Assembly (NCBI RefSeq): GCF_000934755.1
Contig: NZ_JYNP01000055.1
Coordinates: 1 to 37,102 of the forward strand
Source of the DNA: Desulfonatronovibrio magnus
Lineage (GTDB): Bacteria > Desulfobacterota > Desulfovibrionia > Desulfovibrionales > Desulfonatronovibrionaceae
Direction of reading: 5' to 3'
DNA: 37,102 nucleotides
Below, piece by piece: positions 3,045-37,102 of the stretch. Position 1 is the first letter of the stretch. Every line of letters starts with the position of its first letter. The position numbers were made by a program, and so were the translations under genes. The notes beneath the pieces are model-generated. The model saw only the letters and a list, made by a program, of their open reading frames with translations, had not been told where the DNA came from and made no database searches.

Positions 3045-3122
3045 TTCTTCAGCCTTCAGCCTTTTTAGCCTTCAACCTTCAACCTTCAACCTTCAGCCTT
3101 CAGCCTTCTAAGCCTTCAGCCT
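3045..3122. repeat. degenerate heptanucleotide tandem repeat (CCTTCAG)n
   Basis: About ten imperfect copies of CCTTCAG with variants CCTTCAA and interruptions (TTTTTAG, CTAAG). It lies between the stop of the membrane hydrolase gene and the start of the AAA-ATPase-like gene. The same unit recurs at 14365, 17913, 18751, 18988 and 27808. Confidence 0.85.
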
Positions 3123-3187
3123 GTATAACCACAACTTAACGATTCTTGTTGAATTTGGGTTGTGGGCACAGCCGGCATTAACAATTG

Positions 3188-6742: not shown

Positions 6743-7810
6743 AACTTACAAGTAACTAGAATCGTTTTGCTAATAAATTCAGATGGTTACAATTTTCACA
6801 TTTTTATGATTTTTGCTTATGATTCATGTACATTTGCCAGCAAAGTTCCGTCAAAGATGGGAACTTTGAGCCTGGCACAGCTTCCTGCCCGGAGGCTTAC
6901 AGCCCGGAGGGGGACTGTCCCTCGCTGTGTAAATTTTGTCATTAAAGCCAATTTCTTCCAGGGACCAATGCAGCATCAAACTTTTTTATAGTACCTCGCG
7001 GGGACTGTCCCAATTTCCAGAAAAGTGACAGACTCGTAAAGTTACTCACACGTTCGGTCCCGGTCCGCCCGGGTGAGGAGCTTCTAAGTAACCAGAACCA
7101 AATTAGCAATAAATTCAGAGCATTATGTCTTTACCATACAGATTGCTCCGGTCTCTCAGGCTCCCTCGTGGGTGACAGGTTTTCAGCAACCACATCCCAG
7201 ACACTTCAGATGTCATTGCGAGCGAGTTTTCGAGCGCGGCAATCCCTAACGCGTAAAGGCTGATTTTTTAGTTACTCACAAGTTCGGTCCCGGTCCCCCC
7301 CAGGTGAGGAGCTTACAAGTAACTTCAAAAAAACTGGACCCCGGATCAAGTCCGGGGTGACGGTTAAAGCAAGCTATTACTCTTTATCGTCATTCCGGCG
7401 AAAGCCGGAATCCAGGCTTTTCCTTGTTCTCAAGCTCCAGCCTGGGAATGAGGGGTAATATTTTTACTTATGATTGATTCTCAATCACCAGAAAAATTCC
7501 GTCAAAGATGGAAACTTTGCGCTTAGCACAGCTTCCTGCCCGGAGGCTTACAGCCCGGAGGGGGACTGTCCCTCGCTGTGTAAATTTTTCCATTGAAGCA
7601 AATTTCCTCCAGGAACCAATGCAGCATCAGTCTTGTTTGTAGCACCTCGCGGGGACTGTCCCAATTTCCAGATATGGGACTGTTCTTCAAGGTGGAGGCG
7701 GCTTCCAGCCGCCTGGAATTAAATAGCCTGCAGGATGCAGGCTCCACTATAAAGACAGTTACTCACAAGTTCGGTCCCGGGGACCCTGTGAGGAGCTTCT
7801 ATGTAAGTAC
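6743..7810. repeat. intergenic repeat mosaic, array 1 (modules A-B-D-A-C with palindromic spacers)
   Basis: Reading left to right: module A (about 6743-7040), palindromic spacer P (7041-7092), module B (7093-7270), P (7271-7323), module D (7324-7460), module A (7461-7690), module C (7691-7757), P (7758-7810). All are inverted relative to the other six arrays. P runs from GTTACTCAC to a terminal AGTAAC-like arm with a CCCGGG-type core. Module A holds two GGGACTGTCCC palindromes and the 31-bp block (6880-6910 and 7531-7561). Module D has two REP-like hairpins: CCCCGGA/TCCGGGG (7339-7357) and ATTCCGGC/GCCGGAAT (7392-7411). Open frames inside (for example 7523-7747) only reflect the repeat sequence. 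Confidence 0.85.
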
Positions 7811-14340: not shown

Positions 14341-14364
14341 AGGTCTCCAAGTAAAAAAATCAGC

Positions 14365-14450
14365 CCTCTTCCTTCAGCCTTCAGCCTTCAGCCTTCAGCC
14401 TTCAGCCTTCCCCCTTCTTCCTCTTCCTTCAGCCTTCCCCCTTCCGCCCT
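14365..14450. repeat. degenerate heptanucleotide tandem repeat (CCTTCAG)n
   Basis: Five consecutive good copies of CCTTCAG at about 14381-14415, then degenerate pyrimidine-rich copies (CCTTCCC, CCTTCTT). It lies between two convergent gene ends (14340 and 14467). Confidence 0.88.
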
Positions 14451-18850: not shown

Positions 18851-18987
18851 AATCTGTTCCAACCTGCGTACAAACAATCATCTGCGCACAAGGTGGCAAA
18901 AAAACCGGTAACAAGGGCACTCAAATGATCGCCCCTCACTTGAGTGCCCTGCAAGGTTATTTTTGTGACTTACTCCTGACCAACCCC

Positions 18988-19103
18988 TCCAGCCTTCTCT
19001 TTTCTTCCTTCACCCTTCTTCCTTCAGCCTTCAGCCTTCACCCTTCAGCCTTCACCCTTCAGCCTTCACCCTTCAGCCTTCAGCCTTCACCCTTCAGCCT
19101 TCT
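18988..19103. repeat. degenerate heptanucleotide tandem repeat (CCTTCAG/CCTTCAC)n
   Basis: The longest run in the window, about 16 units, in which CCTTCAG and CCTTCAC alternate partly regularly. It lies at the 3' end of ahcY (stop at 19107). Confidence 0.9.
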
Positions 19104-19106
19104 AAC

Positions 19107-20552
<1,446 letters not shown>

Positions 20553-21073: not shown

Positions 21074-21690
21074 ATTACTTGTGAGTTAAAAGCTCCTCAC
21101 CCGGGGGACCGGGACCGAACCTGGGAGTAACTGTCTTTAAAGTGGAGCCTGCATCCTGCAGGCTATTTAATTCCAGGCGGCTGGAAGCCGCCTCCACCTT
21201 GAAAAACAGTCCCATATTTGGAAATTGGGACAGTCCCCGCGAGGTGCTACAAACAAGACTGATGCTGCATTGGTTCCTGGTAGAAATTTGATTTAATGAT
21301 AAAATTTACACAGCGAGGGACAGTCCCTGTGCCAAGTGCAAAGTTCCCATCTTTGACGGAACTTTTCTGGCAAATGTGCATCAATCATGAGCAAAAATCG
21401 TAAAAATGTGAAAATTGTAACCGTCTGATTTTATTAGCAAAACGATTCCAGTTACTTGTAAGCTCCTCACCCGGGGGACCGGGACCGAACCTGGGAGTAA
21501 CTAAGAATCAGCCTTAGCGCGTTAGGGATTGCCGCGCTCGAAGACTCGCTCGCAATGACACCTGAGCTGTCAGGGATGTAGTTGCTGAAAACCTGTCATC
21601 CACGAGGGAGCCTAAGCGACGAAGCAATCTGTATGGTAAAACCATAATACTCTGAATTTATTAGCAAAACGATTGTAGTTGCTTGTTAGC
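21074..21690. repeat. intergenic repeat mosaic, array 2 (P-C-A-P-B)
   Basis: Order: spacer P (21074-21132), module C (21133-21205; hairpins GCCTGCATCCTGCAGGC and GGCGGCTGGAAGCCGCC), module A (21206-21450, without the 31-bp block: AGTCCC ends at 21327 and runs directly into TGTGCC), P (21451-21501), module B (21502-21675), then a decayed P half next to the stop of the DoxX-like gene. Both A and B end with the same tail (TTTATTAGCAAAACGATT). Confidence 0.85.
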
Positions 21691-25433: not shown

Positions 25434-25700
25434 AAGTAGTCAGGGGCGGTCGCTCAGAAGCTCCCCACCCGTGCGGACCGGAACCGAACCTGTGAGAAAC
25501 TTGAAATAGCCTCAACGTGTTCGAGATTGCCGCGCTCGAAGACTCGCTCGCAATGACACCTGAGGTGTCAGGGATGTGGTTGCTGAAAACCTGTCACCAG
25601 CGAGGGAGCATAAACGACCGAAGCAATCTGTATGGTAAAACCATAATGCTTTGAATTTATTACCAATTTGGTTTTAGTTAATTTGAAGGTTTGCCCATAT
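25434..25700. repeat. intergenic repeat mosaic, array 3 (P-B)
   Basis: A decayed spacer P (about 25455-25500), module B (about 25501-25672) and a short P remnant. It separates the sensor kinase from the REC-STAS gene. Just before it, GGAATAGTTTAGC (about 25416) resembles the end of the foldback elements. Confidence 0.75.
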
Positions 25701-27807: not shown

Positions 27808-27899
27808 TCAATCTTCAGCCTCATTCTTCCCTCTCCCTTCAACCTCCAACCACACTCTTCCCTCTTCCTTCAGCCTTCAGCCTTCTCCCTTCAGCCTTA
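27808..27899. repeat. degenerate heptanucleotide tandem repeat (CCTTCAG)n
   Basis: A pyrimidine-rich run with recognisable CCTTCAG copies at about 27867-27898 and degenerate copies (CCTTCAA, CTCTTCC) before them. It lies between the binding-protein gene and the kinase gene. Confidence 0.75.
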
Positions 27900-27935
27900 A
27901 AACCGGTGCCATTCAAATTGCCAACAAAGTCCGCC

Positions 27936-29364: not shown

Positions 29365-29945
29365 TTATTAGAGGCCCCTCACCCGGCGGCCCGGGACCGA
29401 ACGTGTTAGTAACTAAAAATCAGTCTTAGCGCGAGATTGCTTCGCTTCGCTCGCAACAAGGATTGCCGCGCTAGAAGACTCGCTCACAATGACACCTGAG
29501 CTGTCAGGGATGTACTTGCTCAAAATCTGTCATTGCGAGGGAGCCTAAGCGACCGAAGCAATCTGTATGGTAAAGCCATAATATTCTGAATTTATTGGAT
29601 ATTAGATTGTAGTTACTTGTAAGTGCTTCACCCGGGCGGCCCGGGTCCGAACCTGTGAATAACTTTAGGATACTGTCACTTTTTTGGAAACTTGGACAGT
29701 CCCCGCGAGGTACTATAAAAAAGACTGATGCTGCATTGGTTCCTGGAAGAAATTTGCTTTGATGAAAAAATCTACACAGCGAGGGACAGTCCCCCTCCGG
29801 GCTGTAAGCCTCCGGGCAGGAAGCTGGGCCAGGCGCAAAGCTCCCATCTTTGACGGAAATTTTCTGGTAATTTGGCATGAATCATAAGCAAAAATCGTGA
29901 AAAACAGAAAGCGATAACTCTCTGAATTTATTTTAAGATCATAGT
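29365..29945. repeat. intergenic repeat mosaic, array 4 (P-B-P-A)
   Basis: Spacer P (about 29365-29414), module B (29415-29611, with a short extra duplication of GCTTCGCTTCGCTCGCAA near 29440), P (29612-29663) and module A (29664-29945). Module A carries the 31-bp block at 29794-29824. It lies between divergent genes (29162/29285 and 30063). Open frames here are repeat artefacts. Confidence 0.85.
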
Positions 29946-32064: not shown

Positions 32065-32650
32065 CTTAGAAGATCACCACCCGGGCAGCCCGGGACCGAA
32101 ATTGTGAGTAACTTATACCCCTCGTTCCCAGGCTCCAGCCTGGGGACAAGAAAAACAGCCTTAGCGCGTTTGGGATTGCCGCGCTCGAAGACTCGCTCGC
32201 AATGACACCTGAGATGTCAGGGATGTAGTTGCTCAAAACCTGTCACCCACGAAGGAGCCTAAGCGACCGAAGCAATCTGTAAGGTAAGGCCGTAATACTC
32301 TGAATTTATTACATATACGACTCCAATTACTTGTAAGTTTATCACCCGTGCGGTCCGGGACCGAACCTGTGAGTAACTGCCTGTAAAGTGGAGCCTGCAT
32401 CCTGCAGGCTATTTAATTCCAGGCGGCTGGAAGCCGCCTCCACATTGAAGAACAGTCCCATATCTGAAAATTGGGACAGTCCCCCTCCGGGCTGTAAGCC
32501 TCCGGGCAGGAAGATGTGCTAAGCGCAAAGCTCCCATCTTTGACGGAACTTTTTTGGCAAAAGTGCATCAATCATAAGCAAAAATCGTAAAAATATGAAA
32601 ATTGTAACCGTCTGATTTTATTTTCAAAACGATTATAGTTACTTTAGAAG
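32065..32650. repeat. intergenic repeat mosaic, array 5 (P-B-P-C-A with internal deletion)
   Basis: P (about 32065-32112), a short hairpin block (CCCAGGCTCCAGCCTGGG, about 32124-32141), module B (32150-32325), P (32326-32377), module C (32378-32450), a shortened module A (32451-32640) and a P remnant that reaches the stop of the next gene. Module A has lost about 90 bp between its two GGGACAGTCCC palindromes and keeps the 31-bp block (32484-32514). Confidence 0.85.
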
Positions 32651-33879: not shown

Positions 33880-34475
33880 TAACTTGTAAGCTCCTCACCC
33901 GGGCGACCGGGACCGAACCTGTGAGTAACTAAAAAATCAGCCTTAACACGTTAGAGATTGCCGCGCTCGCCCCAGTTGAATGGCTGCGCCTACACTGCGT
34001 GTATTCAACGAGGTAAAAAGACTCGCTCGCAATGACAGCTGAGCTGTCAGGGGTGTAATTGCTGAAAACTTGTCACCCACGAGGGAGCCTAAGCGACCGA
34101 AGTAATCTGTATGGTAAAACCATAATACTTTGAATTTATTGCATATTTGGTTTTAGTTACTTGTAAGCTCCTCACCCGGGCGGACCAGGACCGAACCTGT
34201 GAGTAACTTTACGAATCTGTCACTTTTCTGAAAATTGGGACAGTCCCCGCGAGGTACTTTAAAAAAGATTGATGCTGCATTGGTTCCTGGAAGAGATTTT
34301 CTTTGATGACAAAATTTACACAGCGAGGGACAGTCCCTGTGCCAGGCGCAAAGTTTCCATCTTTGACGGAACTTTTCTGGCAAATGTGCATCAATCATAA
34401 GCAAAAATCGTGAAAATGTGAAAAACATAACCGTCTGATTTTATTAGCAAAACGATTCCAATTACTTGTAAGCAT
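33880..34475. repeat. intergenic repeat mosaic, array 6 (P-B-P-A)
   Basis: P (33880-33929), module B (33930-34155), P (34156-34207), module A (34208-34460) and a P remnant. Module B has a 48-bp insertion (about 33970-34017) with inverted ends GTTGAAT/ATTCAAC. Module A lacks the 31-bp block: AGTCCC ends at 34337 and TGTGCC follows. Confidence 0.85.
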
Positions 34476-36709: not shown

Positions 36710-37102
36710 ACACTTATAAGCTCTTCACCCGGGCGGCCCGGGACCGAACCTGCGAGTAACTTTAAGAGTCTGTCACTTTTCTGGAAATTGGGACAGTCCC
36801 CGCGAGGTACTATAAAAAAGATTGATACTGCATTGGTTCCTGGAAGAAATTGGCTTTAATGACAAAATTTACACAGCGAGGGACAGTCCCTGTGCCTGGC
36901 GTAAAGCTCTCATCTTTGACGGAATTTTTCAGGCAAATGTGCATCAATCATAAGCAAAAATCGTAAAAACTTGAAACAGCCTTAACACGTTAGAGATTGC
37001 CGCGCTCGAAGACTCGCTCGCAATGACACCTGAGGTGTCAGGGATGTGGTTGCTAAAAACCTGTCACCCACAAGTGAGCCTAAGCGACCGAAGCAATCTG
37101 TA
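36710..37102. repeat. intergenic repeat mosaic, array 7 (P-A-B, runs off the window)
   Basis: P (about 36710-36760), module A (36761-36971, without the 31-bp block near 36890), fused without a spacer to module B (36972 to the window edge). The join is at AAAATCGTAAAAACTTGAAA. No gene is seen from 36643 to the end. Confidence 0.82.

What the first reader, a model, noticed from the sequence alone, without database searches (positions are those of the whole stretch)
6743..7810. Modular repeat arrays separated by a conserved imperfect palindrome
Seven intergenic arrays (6743, 21074, 25434, 29365, 32065, 33880, 36710) are built from the same modules A, B and C, with an approximately 52-bp spacer P between most of them. 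P has nested complementary arms: GTTACT/AGTAAC outside, CTCAC/GTGAG in the middle and CCCGGG/CCCGGG inside, so it can form a cruciform. Modules A and B share the tail TTTATTAGCAAAACGATT before P. The order is not random: in the common orientation B precedes P and then (C)A. This suggests P is the recombination or transposition substrate and modules are exchanged as cassettes. Array 1 is inverted relative to the rest.
Basis: partly seen in the sequence, partly recalled or inferred. Interest (0 to 1): 0.75.

Follow-up and report, generated by a model that had tools for sequence, protein, structure and literature searches.

The report
Genome-wide tandem mobile repeat cassettes
The repeats are short, gene-less jumping DNA units, present in hundreds of copies in a relative of soda-lake sulfate-reducing bacteria; they insert right after a short target word and pile up end to end, so the conserved palindrome between them is the joint where one unit's tail meets the next unit's head.

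Summary
In detail: seven arrays hold 13 units, and the P core occurs 497 times in the 4.81-Mb genome. P is not one module but a joint: the right end (RE, AGTTACTTGTAAG) of one unit meets the left end (LE, 41 bases, CTCC...AACT) of the next. A unit is LE + variable gene-less body + RE, median 307 bp. In a 2.42-Mb sample, units sit after TT(A/G)NAAG, leave no target duplication, lie between genes, and split a host MITE at CCTTAAAAG^CGC. The RE carries the same word, which explains tandem arrays. Arm covariation is weak, and the LE hairpin is only slightly more stable than shuffles. Best explanation: non-autonomous elements moving like IS200/IS605-derived PATEs, P being the circle joint. No autonomous copy or enzyme was identified and the RE has no hairpin, so PATE membership is not claimed. 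Targets also resemble the RE upstream of the word, complementary to bases beside the LE hairpin: a possible natural DNA guide, unproven. Found so far in two genera of one Desulfovibrionales family. New variant of a known kind.

The parts
7312..7799 (-). Array 1, unit 1: LE + modules C, A, F + RE (488 bp)
7081..7312 (-). Array 1, unit 2: LE + module B + RE (232 bp)
6745..7082 (-). Array 1, unit 3: LE + module A + RE (338 bp)
7270..7324 (-). P junction (RE of unit 1 joined to LE of unit 2)
   Evidence: alignment A2
7040..7093 (-). P junction (RE of unit 2 joined to LE of unit 3)
   Evidence: alignment A2
21090..21462 (+). Array 2, unit 1: LE + C, A + RE (373 bp)
21460..21689 (+). Array 2, unit 2: LE + B + RE (230 bp)
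21450..21502 (+). P junction of array 2
25459..25688 (+). Array 3: one lone B unit (230 bp), LE only on the left and a decayed RE on the right
29372..29623 (+). Array 4, unit 1: LE + B + RE (252 bp)
29622..29930 (+). Array 4, unit 2: LE + A; RE not recognised, end approximate
29611..29664 (+). P junction of array 4
32071..32337 (+). Array 5, unit 1: LE + start of D, then B + RE (267 bp)
32336..32649 (+). Array 5, unit 2: LE + C, A; decayed RE
32325..32378 (+). P junction of array 5
33888..34167 (+). Array 6, unit 1: LE + B + RE (280 bp)
34166..34472 (+). Array 6, unit 2: LE + A + RE (307 bp)
34155..34208 (+). P junction of array 6
36719..37102 (+). Array 7: LE + A running into B, cut by the window end

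Best explanation
A large family of non-autonomous mobile units. Each has a left end (LE) that can form an imperfect hairpin, a variable gene-less body made of REP-like palindromes and other conserved blocks, and a right end (RE) AGTTACTT(GT/AG)AAG. An enzyme supplied in trans cuts after TTRNAAG at the left flank and after the RE's own TTRNAAG. It joins the ends into a circle whose joint is P, and inserts the circle after another TTRNAAG without target duplication. Because the RE ends in the target word, resident units are themselves targets, so tandem arrays grow at RE|LE joints. Neighbours of the same type are rare, probably because direct repeats recombine away. Shown from sequence: the ends, target word, lack of duplication, split host repeats, intergenic placing, array logic. 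Inferred: the circle, single-strand chemistry of the IS200/IS605 kind, the trans enzyme, loss of like neighbours.
For: 497 copies of the P core. Left flanks of 143 distinct unit-free left ends read T.80 T.83 R.84 N A.87 A.93 G.91, and 60 of 143 are exactly TTRNAAG, against 0.00075 per position in the sample. 55 lone units: no correlation between target and RE at any of 13 positions, lowest p 0.058. A host MITE has 24 empty copies and 10 entered at CCTTAAAAG (one reads CCTTAGAAG); 5 of 10 resume the MITE right after the RE, 2 run into a next unit, 3 do not resume recognisably. 1 of 222 arrays has its LE in an ORF over 200 aa, a 4-mismatch head, while ORFs of 110 aa or more cover 80%. A and B bodies share variants of LE and RE. 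In relative G005, 16 of 24 anchored heads follow exactly TTRNAAG and 21 of 24 follow AAG; in G006 3 and 5 of 11; in G009, G016 and G017 together 2 and 5 of 8. Base +1 of the target is C in 54 of 132 right ends, flank background 0.19, p 5e-9, as reported for IS608, which also inserts 3' of a short word through a circle (PMC5934647, passages). Orientation bias 94:62 to the G-rich strand, the direction that I infer for insertion into the lagging-strand template, the preference stated for IS608 and ISDra2 (PMC6006769, abstract in listing).
Against: No autonomous copy seen: of 324 heads in 2.42 Mb, 274 have an RE within 600 bases, and only two of the other 50 have a clean RE 560-4500 bases on, both with ordinary modules behind the head. 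In the relatives' stretches no first RE lay at 600-4500 bases, but those stretches are short. G005 has 22 heads at up to 3 mismatches but no Y1_Tnp match (89% complete). The RE has no hairpin: its last 40 bases fold less well than shuffles, unlike IS608 or PATEs. Arm covariation is weak. LE extension and RE do not covary (p 1.0). The window's own arrays go against the skew trend, 6 to 1. No empty site in another strain was compared.
Confidence: 0.55

Rival explanations
1. Cassettes moved by a tyrosine recombinase acting on P as a folded or double-stranded site, in the manner of integron cassettes or of phage integrase acting on Neisseria dRS3 repeats.
For: Tandem cassettes with a shared imperfect palindrome at the joint, no target duplication, short shared core AAG. 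The genome has 24 tyrosine recombinase matches, 19 over the cut-off; of the 10 compared with NCBIfam one (C8:66727) scores best against the integron integrase model TIGR02249, 181 bits, under the cut-off of 265. The weak LE fold does not count against this rival.
Against: attC R boxes were not recognised in P by eye (consensus recalled, not computed). The target has a one-sided word; to its right only C at +1 is preferred. The C8 recombinase lies beside an IS91-type gene with no LE or RE nearby. Units form 222 arrays in half the genome, not one platform.
Confidence: 0.17
2. Rolling-circle elements moved by the genome's single IS91-type Y2 transposase, with LE as terminator and the target word flanking it, as recalled for IS91 or Helitrons.
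For: One Y2_Tnp match, E 3e-56. Fold at one end only, no duplication, tandem arrays.
Against: No LE or RE around that gene. One-ended products would be expected, but 274 of 324 heads have an RE within 600 bases and 123 of 139 tail matches a head within 700.
Confidence: 0.12
3. Not mobile units but REP/BIME-like mosaics spread by homologous recombination, with the palindromes acting as terminators or RNA-stability elements.
For: Bodies are rich in REP-like hairpins; 15-base blocks of the bodies are conserved up to 0.98 in A and 0.99 in B while the last 38 bases are 0.84; placing is intergenic.
Against: Precise ends, a target word and host repeats split at the same base require an end-specific insertion reaction.
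Confidence: 0.05
4. IS110-type insertion guided by RNA.
For: No target duplication, short core.
Against: Three IS110 DEDD matches in the genome, partial, one over the cut-off; target conserved on one side only.
Confidence: 0.03

Closest known systems
PATEs (palindrome-associated transposable elements) of Haloquadratum, related to IS605-type transposons (PMC3119063, passages)
   Same: Too short for a transposase, no target duplication, palindrome near an end, short target word at the 5' side, high copy number (177 and 194 in two strains there).
   Different: Only the LE folds; no related IS605-type parent found; several unrelated bodies; regular tandem arrays at RE|LE joints; target resembles the RE over up to 13 bases.
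IS608 / IS200-IS605 transposition (PMC5934647, passages)
   Same: Insertion 3' of a short word kept in the left flank, hairpin near LE, preference for C at +1, circle junction (there described, here inferred).
   Different: IS608 left and right cleavage words differ (TTAC, TCAA) and both ends have palindromes; here both words are TTRNAAG and the RE has no hairpin; no tnpA in the unit.
Neisserial intergenic mosaic elements (NIMEs; dRS3 + RS; PMC3898611, passages)
   Same: Intergenic arrays of varied repeats with a conserved inverted repeat, hundreds of copies.
   Different: dRS3 is a 20-bp repeat with 6-bp inverted ends and a phage integration target; P is a directional RE|LE joint with a defined insertion word.
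REPINs / BIMEs with RAYT (TnpA-REP) transposases (PMC3116915, and PMC8266576, passages)
   Same: Extragenic, palindromic, non-autonomous, high copy, tandem clusters; this genome holds RAYT-like genes.
   Different: REPINs are two inverted REPs, REPs preceded by a GTAG-type tag; here a unit has one folding end and a different RE, and spans 159-591 bp.

Membership tests
PATE / IS200-IS605 derivative | No target-site duplication | tested here: met
   55 lone units, no target-RE correlation; host MITE resumes at the next base in 5 of 10
PATE / IS200-IS605 derivative | Insertion 3' of a specific short word kept in the left flank | tested here: met
   TTRNAAG, 143 distinct left ends
PATE / IS200-IS605 derivative | Near-terminal palindromes at both ends | tested here: not met
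   LE folds at -2 kcal/mol or better in 265 of 274; the last 28 bases of RE in 9 of 274, fewer than flanks (38 of 169). One B-type RE of three folded singly showed a weak tip hairpin
PATE / IS200-IS605 derivative | Ends related to an IS605-type parent or a TnpA gene | tested here: inconclusive
   10 Y1_Tnp matches, none enclosed by LE and RE; the ends of the one IS200-type gene were only looked at by eye, and other species' IS ends were not searched
PATE / IS200-IS605 derivative | Single-stranded circular intermediate | not testable with these tools
   no reads
MITE | Terminal inverted repeats, often with target duplication | tested here: not met
   Only a subterminal 8-bp LE/RE complementarity; no duplication
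Integron cassette array | attC site with R boxes and an integron integrase | tested here: inconclusive
   best integrase below the TIGR02249 cut-off (10 of 24 matches compared); R boxes judged by eye only
NIME | RS modules flanked by dRS3 (ATTCCC N8 GGGAAT) | tested here: not met
   the P consensus does not hold that pattern, by reading; no pattern search was run
REPIN | Two inverted REPs with a GTAG-type tag | tested here: not met
   one folding end per unit; the GTAAG or AGAAG before LE belongs to the RE or the target

The most novel reading that the evidence does not exclude
The outer P arms are a built-in guide. The bases just 3' of the LE hairpin (AGTAACT) pair with the stretch just upstream of the cut word in the RE and in targets (AGTTACT). 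This would be a natural form of the extended base-pair targeting that was engineered in IS608, and it would make resident units preferred targets and so build cassette arrays. Unit-free left flanks match AGTTAC at exactly -13 to -8 with a mean of 2.71 of 6, against 1.61 in shuffles (highest of 2000 shuffles 1.90), and 2.35 against 1.58 when the 18 best of 143 are dropped. Direct protein reading of the same bases and relics of lost units are not excluded, and guide-RE covariation was absent.
Probability: 0.25. Interest if true: 0.75.

Novelty: new variant of a known kind. Interest (0 to 1): 0.5.

Why it matters
Bacterial intergenic mosaics are often described as repeats without a rule for how they form. 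Here the rule can be read from sequence: an end that carries its own target word makes tandem arrays of unrelated bodies. About 500 copies, a defined target and some very similar pairs (best 99.7% identical) make the family a tractable test of how gene-less elements spread. If the guide reading holds, it is a natural counterpart of engineered DNA-guided insertion.

Tried and rejected
P as a stand-alone spacer module: rejected, lone units carry its halves at opposite ends. Fixed module order: rejected. Central-dinucleotide exchange or a target duplication: rejected by lack of correlation. Retro-insertion with 5' truncation: disfavoured, 123 of 139 tail matches have a head within 700 bases. A body coding for a transposase: none seen; the only two long LE-RE spans begin with ordinary modules. 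One head (C117:12317) is followed by unfamiliar sequence, which I did not pursue. Known RNA family: only a tRNA in the window at gathering thresholds. Conserved RNA fold of A or B bodies: both-side changes in 3 of 36 and 1 of 44 predicted pairs. Plasmids and phages: no match to one A unit with its P, 318 bases. Exact P-core patterns: none in genome contigs or viral contigs, where records near the own genome may be left out. Papers: no report of this family turned up in searches of the open library, of which I saw listings and, for five papers, passages that bear on this; a sixth (PMC4853749) was looked at without use. Subscription papers are not covered.

Samples and drops: array and target counts use heads with up to 4 mismatches in 2.42 of 4.81 Mb. 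P alignment: 97 copies from the first 1.23 Mb, chosen because their left part looked like an RE within 3 mismatches, so their outer-arm pairing is favoured. A alignment 38 of 52, B 24 of 30 selected units. Lone-unit test: left flanks within 3 mismatches of the RE were left out. Clean left ends: 161 of 222 arrays, 43 dropped for unit remains upstream, 18 without anchor or too near an end; 143 distinct. first gave 0 occupied MITE copies through a script slip (two bases doubled); one search corrected it. One search scored only 40 of 592 candidates; searches list only the first places, though their counts are whole.

Full report
What is there. The window is contig C21 of a 4.81-Mb draft genome, 97.5% complete. 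The seven arrays hold 13 copies of P. A 21-base core from the 3' half of P, up to 3 mismatches, occurs 497 times in the genome, and the reversed pattern never.

P is a junction. In lone units only the right-hand part of P (CTCCTCACCCGGGCGGACCGGGACCGAACCTGTGAGTAACT, here LE, 41 bases) stands at the left, and only its first 13 bases (AGTTACTTGTAAG or AGTTACTTAGAAG, here RE) at the right; between them is a body. In arrays the RE of one unit runs straight into the LE of the next, which makes P. In 2.42 Mb I found 324 heads with up to 4 mismatches, 274 with an RE within 600 bases, lengths 159-591, median 307. They form 222 arrays: 143 single, 58 double, 19 triple, 2 quadruple. Units with a recognised RE fill 3.55% of the sample.

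Bodies. Common bodies are A, B, C+A, D+B and F types. They are rich in REP-like palindromes: GGGACAGTCCC in A; paired hairpins in C, like those beside a RAYT-like gene at C125; CAGGCTCCAGCCTGG in D; CCGGCTTTCGCCGG and CCGGACTTGATCCGG in F. Relatives carry partly other, partly similar bodies between the same ends: the G006 heads shown are mostly followed by D-like starts, some G005 heads by B-like starts. A and B units share variants of both ends, so ends and bodies have been reshuffled.

Insertion rule. At 143 distinct left ends with no unit remains upstream the flank reads T T R N A A G just before the unit. In 55 lone units the target word and the RE word do not correlate, so the RE word belongs to the unit and nothing is duplicated. 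A host MITE with inverted ends (seen by eye) supplies internal empty sites: 24 copies are intact at CCTTAAAAGCGCTAA, and 10 are entered at CCTTAAAAG (one reads CCTTAGAAG), of which 5 resume the MITE at the next base, 2 run into another unit and 3 do not resume recognisably. The base after the cut is C in 54 of 132 right ends. The word recurs in relative G005: 16 of 24 anchored heads exact, 21 of 24 after AAG; less so in G006 (3 and 5 of 11) and in G009, G016 and G017 (2 and 5 of 8). Arrays avoid genes: 1 of 222 LE positions lies in an ORF over 200 aa, and that head is a 4-mismatch match, while crude ORFs of 110 aa or more cover 80%.

Why arrays form, and their order. The RE ends with the target word, so a new unit can enter just after an old one. 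The order is not fixed: A-B 26, B-A 25, A-A 7, B-B 0 of 102 junctions, the other 44 involving other or unclear types. A-A plus B-B is 7 against 29.3 in shuffles, and 0 of 5000 shuffles were as low. Loss of like neighbours by recombination between direct repeats is the simplest cause. Collapse of near-identical tandem copies in assembly cannot be excluded.

Folding. P can fold, and 90.5% of pair cells are kept against 16-46% when the partners are slid. But shuffles of the letters give 90.0%, double changes are 11 against 4.7 with 8 at one pair, the covariation score is reached by 8 of 500 shuffles, and pair 20-49 is broken in 33 of 92 distinct copies. The LE alone folds at -5.3 kcal/mol on average, but only 0.43 better than dinucleotide shuffles; the RE folds less well than its shuffles. 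So an LE hairpin is possible and G+C-rich, while selection on its pairs is weakly shown. LE AGTAACT and RE AGTTACT can pair across the whole unit in the A and B alignments.

Possible guide. Upstream of the word, unit-free targets match AGTTAC at exactly -13 to -8 more than shuffles do (2.71 against 1.61 of 6; offsets -12 and -14 give 1.24 and 1.49). That is the complement of the LE extension. IS608 was engineered to use such an extension (PMC5934647, passages). Variants of LE extension and RE do not covary, so this stays a hypothesis.

Who moves it. The genome has 10 Y1_Tnp matches, three IS110 matches, one over the cut-off, 24 tyrosine recombinase matches, 19 over the cut-off, and one IS91-type Y2 gene next to an integron-integrase-like recombinase. 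I looked at flanks of up to 1.5 kb (18 kb for the Y2 gene) for all but four of these, the four being weak recombinase matches without a locus. Units or fragments lie within 1.5 kb of four loci, L014, L017, L102 and L105, no more than the density of units would give (inference); none encloses the gene. No LE-RE span with a transposase was seen among the 324 heads, though 50 of them have no RE within 600 bases. Relative G005 has 22 heads but no Y1 match at 89% completeness. The array strand is the G-rich strand in 94 of 156 scored arrays (p 0.013; 12 of 168 ambiguous), the direction that I infer for lagging-strand-template insertion, but the window goes the other way.

Distribution. 9 of 61 genomes (own one and 60 relatives) match the core: G005 22, G006 11, G009 4, G004 3, G017 2, and G002, G016 and G024 one each; G024 is of another family, and its single 3-mismatch match is no more than the reversed control shows (2 of 61 genomes). 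With an LE pattern over 395 genomes of the phylum, the own genome has 366 matches and 12 others one each at 3 mismatches, while the reversed control hits 8 genomes: chance level. No match in the plasmid and phage collections for one A unit, and none for exact core patterns in viral contigs or other species' contigs. So, as far as sampled, the family sits in two genera of one family and has expanded in one species. Best pairs reach 99.7% identity, the median best is 92% (135 of 141 units).

Verdict. The units work like PATE or IS200/IS605 elements, but they fail one defining feature that was tested (a hairpin at both ends), and no related TnpA or parent was found. I therefore call them a new variant of gene-less, end-defined mobile elements.

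Noticed in passing
L014 (G000:C125:22275-25625): A RAYT-like domain lies in one long open frame (1221 aa as reported) with sequence that looks like a DNA methylase (judged by eye), with C-type hairpins near it.
   Followed up: partly
2.42 Mb of G000, e.g. C114 around 77070 and C1:162264: A separate MITE-like repeat (end AAAAGCGCTAAACAGATAC) has 24 intact copies and 10 entered by the units, a frequent target.
   Followed up: yes
window 7312-7460, module F; also L192: Module F holds ATTCCGGCTTTCGCCGGAAT, a 20-base palindrome of the same layout as the Neisseria dRS3 pattern (ATTCCC N8 GGGAAT) but with another sixth base.
   Followed up: no
L180:5330-5840 (genome G009): One unit holds many tandem copies of a GGAGGGGAGAAGATAGAGGCCTCCTTCACCAA repeat inside its body.
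   Followed up: no
G000:C6:32014-32145: Two LE copies only 108 bases apart: a unit with most of its body deleted but both ends kept.
   Followed up: no
G000:C8:65570-67540 (L129): IS91-type Y2 transposase gene directly next to a tyrosine recombinase that resembles integron integrases but scores below the model cut-off.
   Followed up: partly
window 3051-3127, 14346-14450, 18961-19121, 27835-27925: Short tandem runs of a 7-base unit (TTCAGCC-like) in several places.
   Followed up: no
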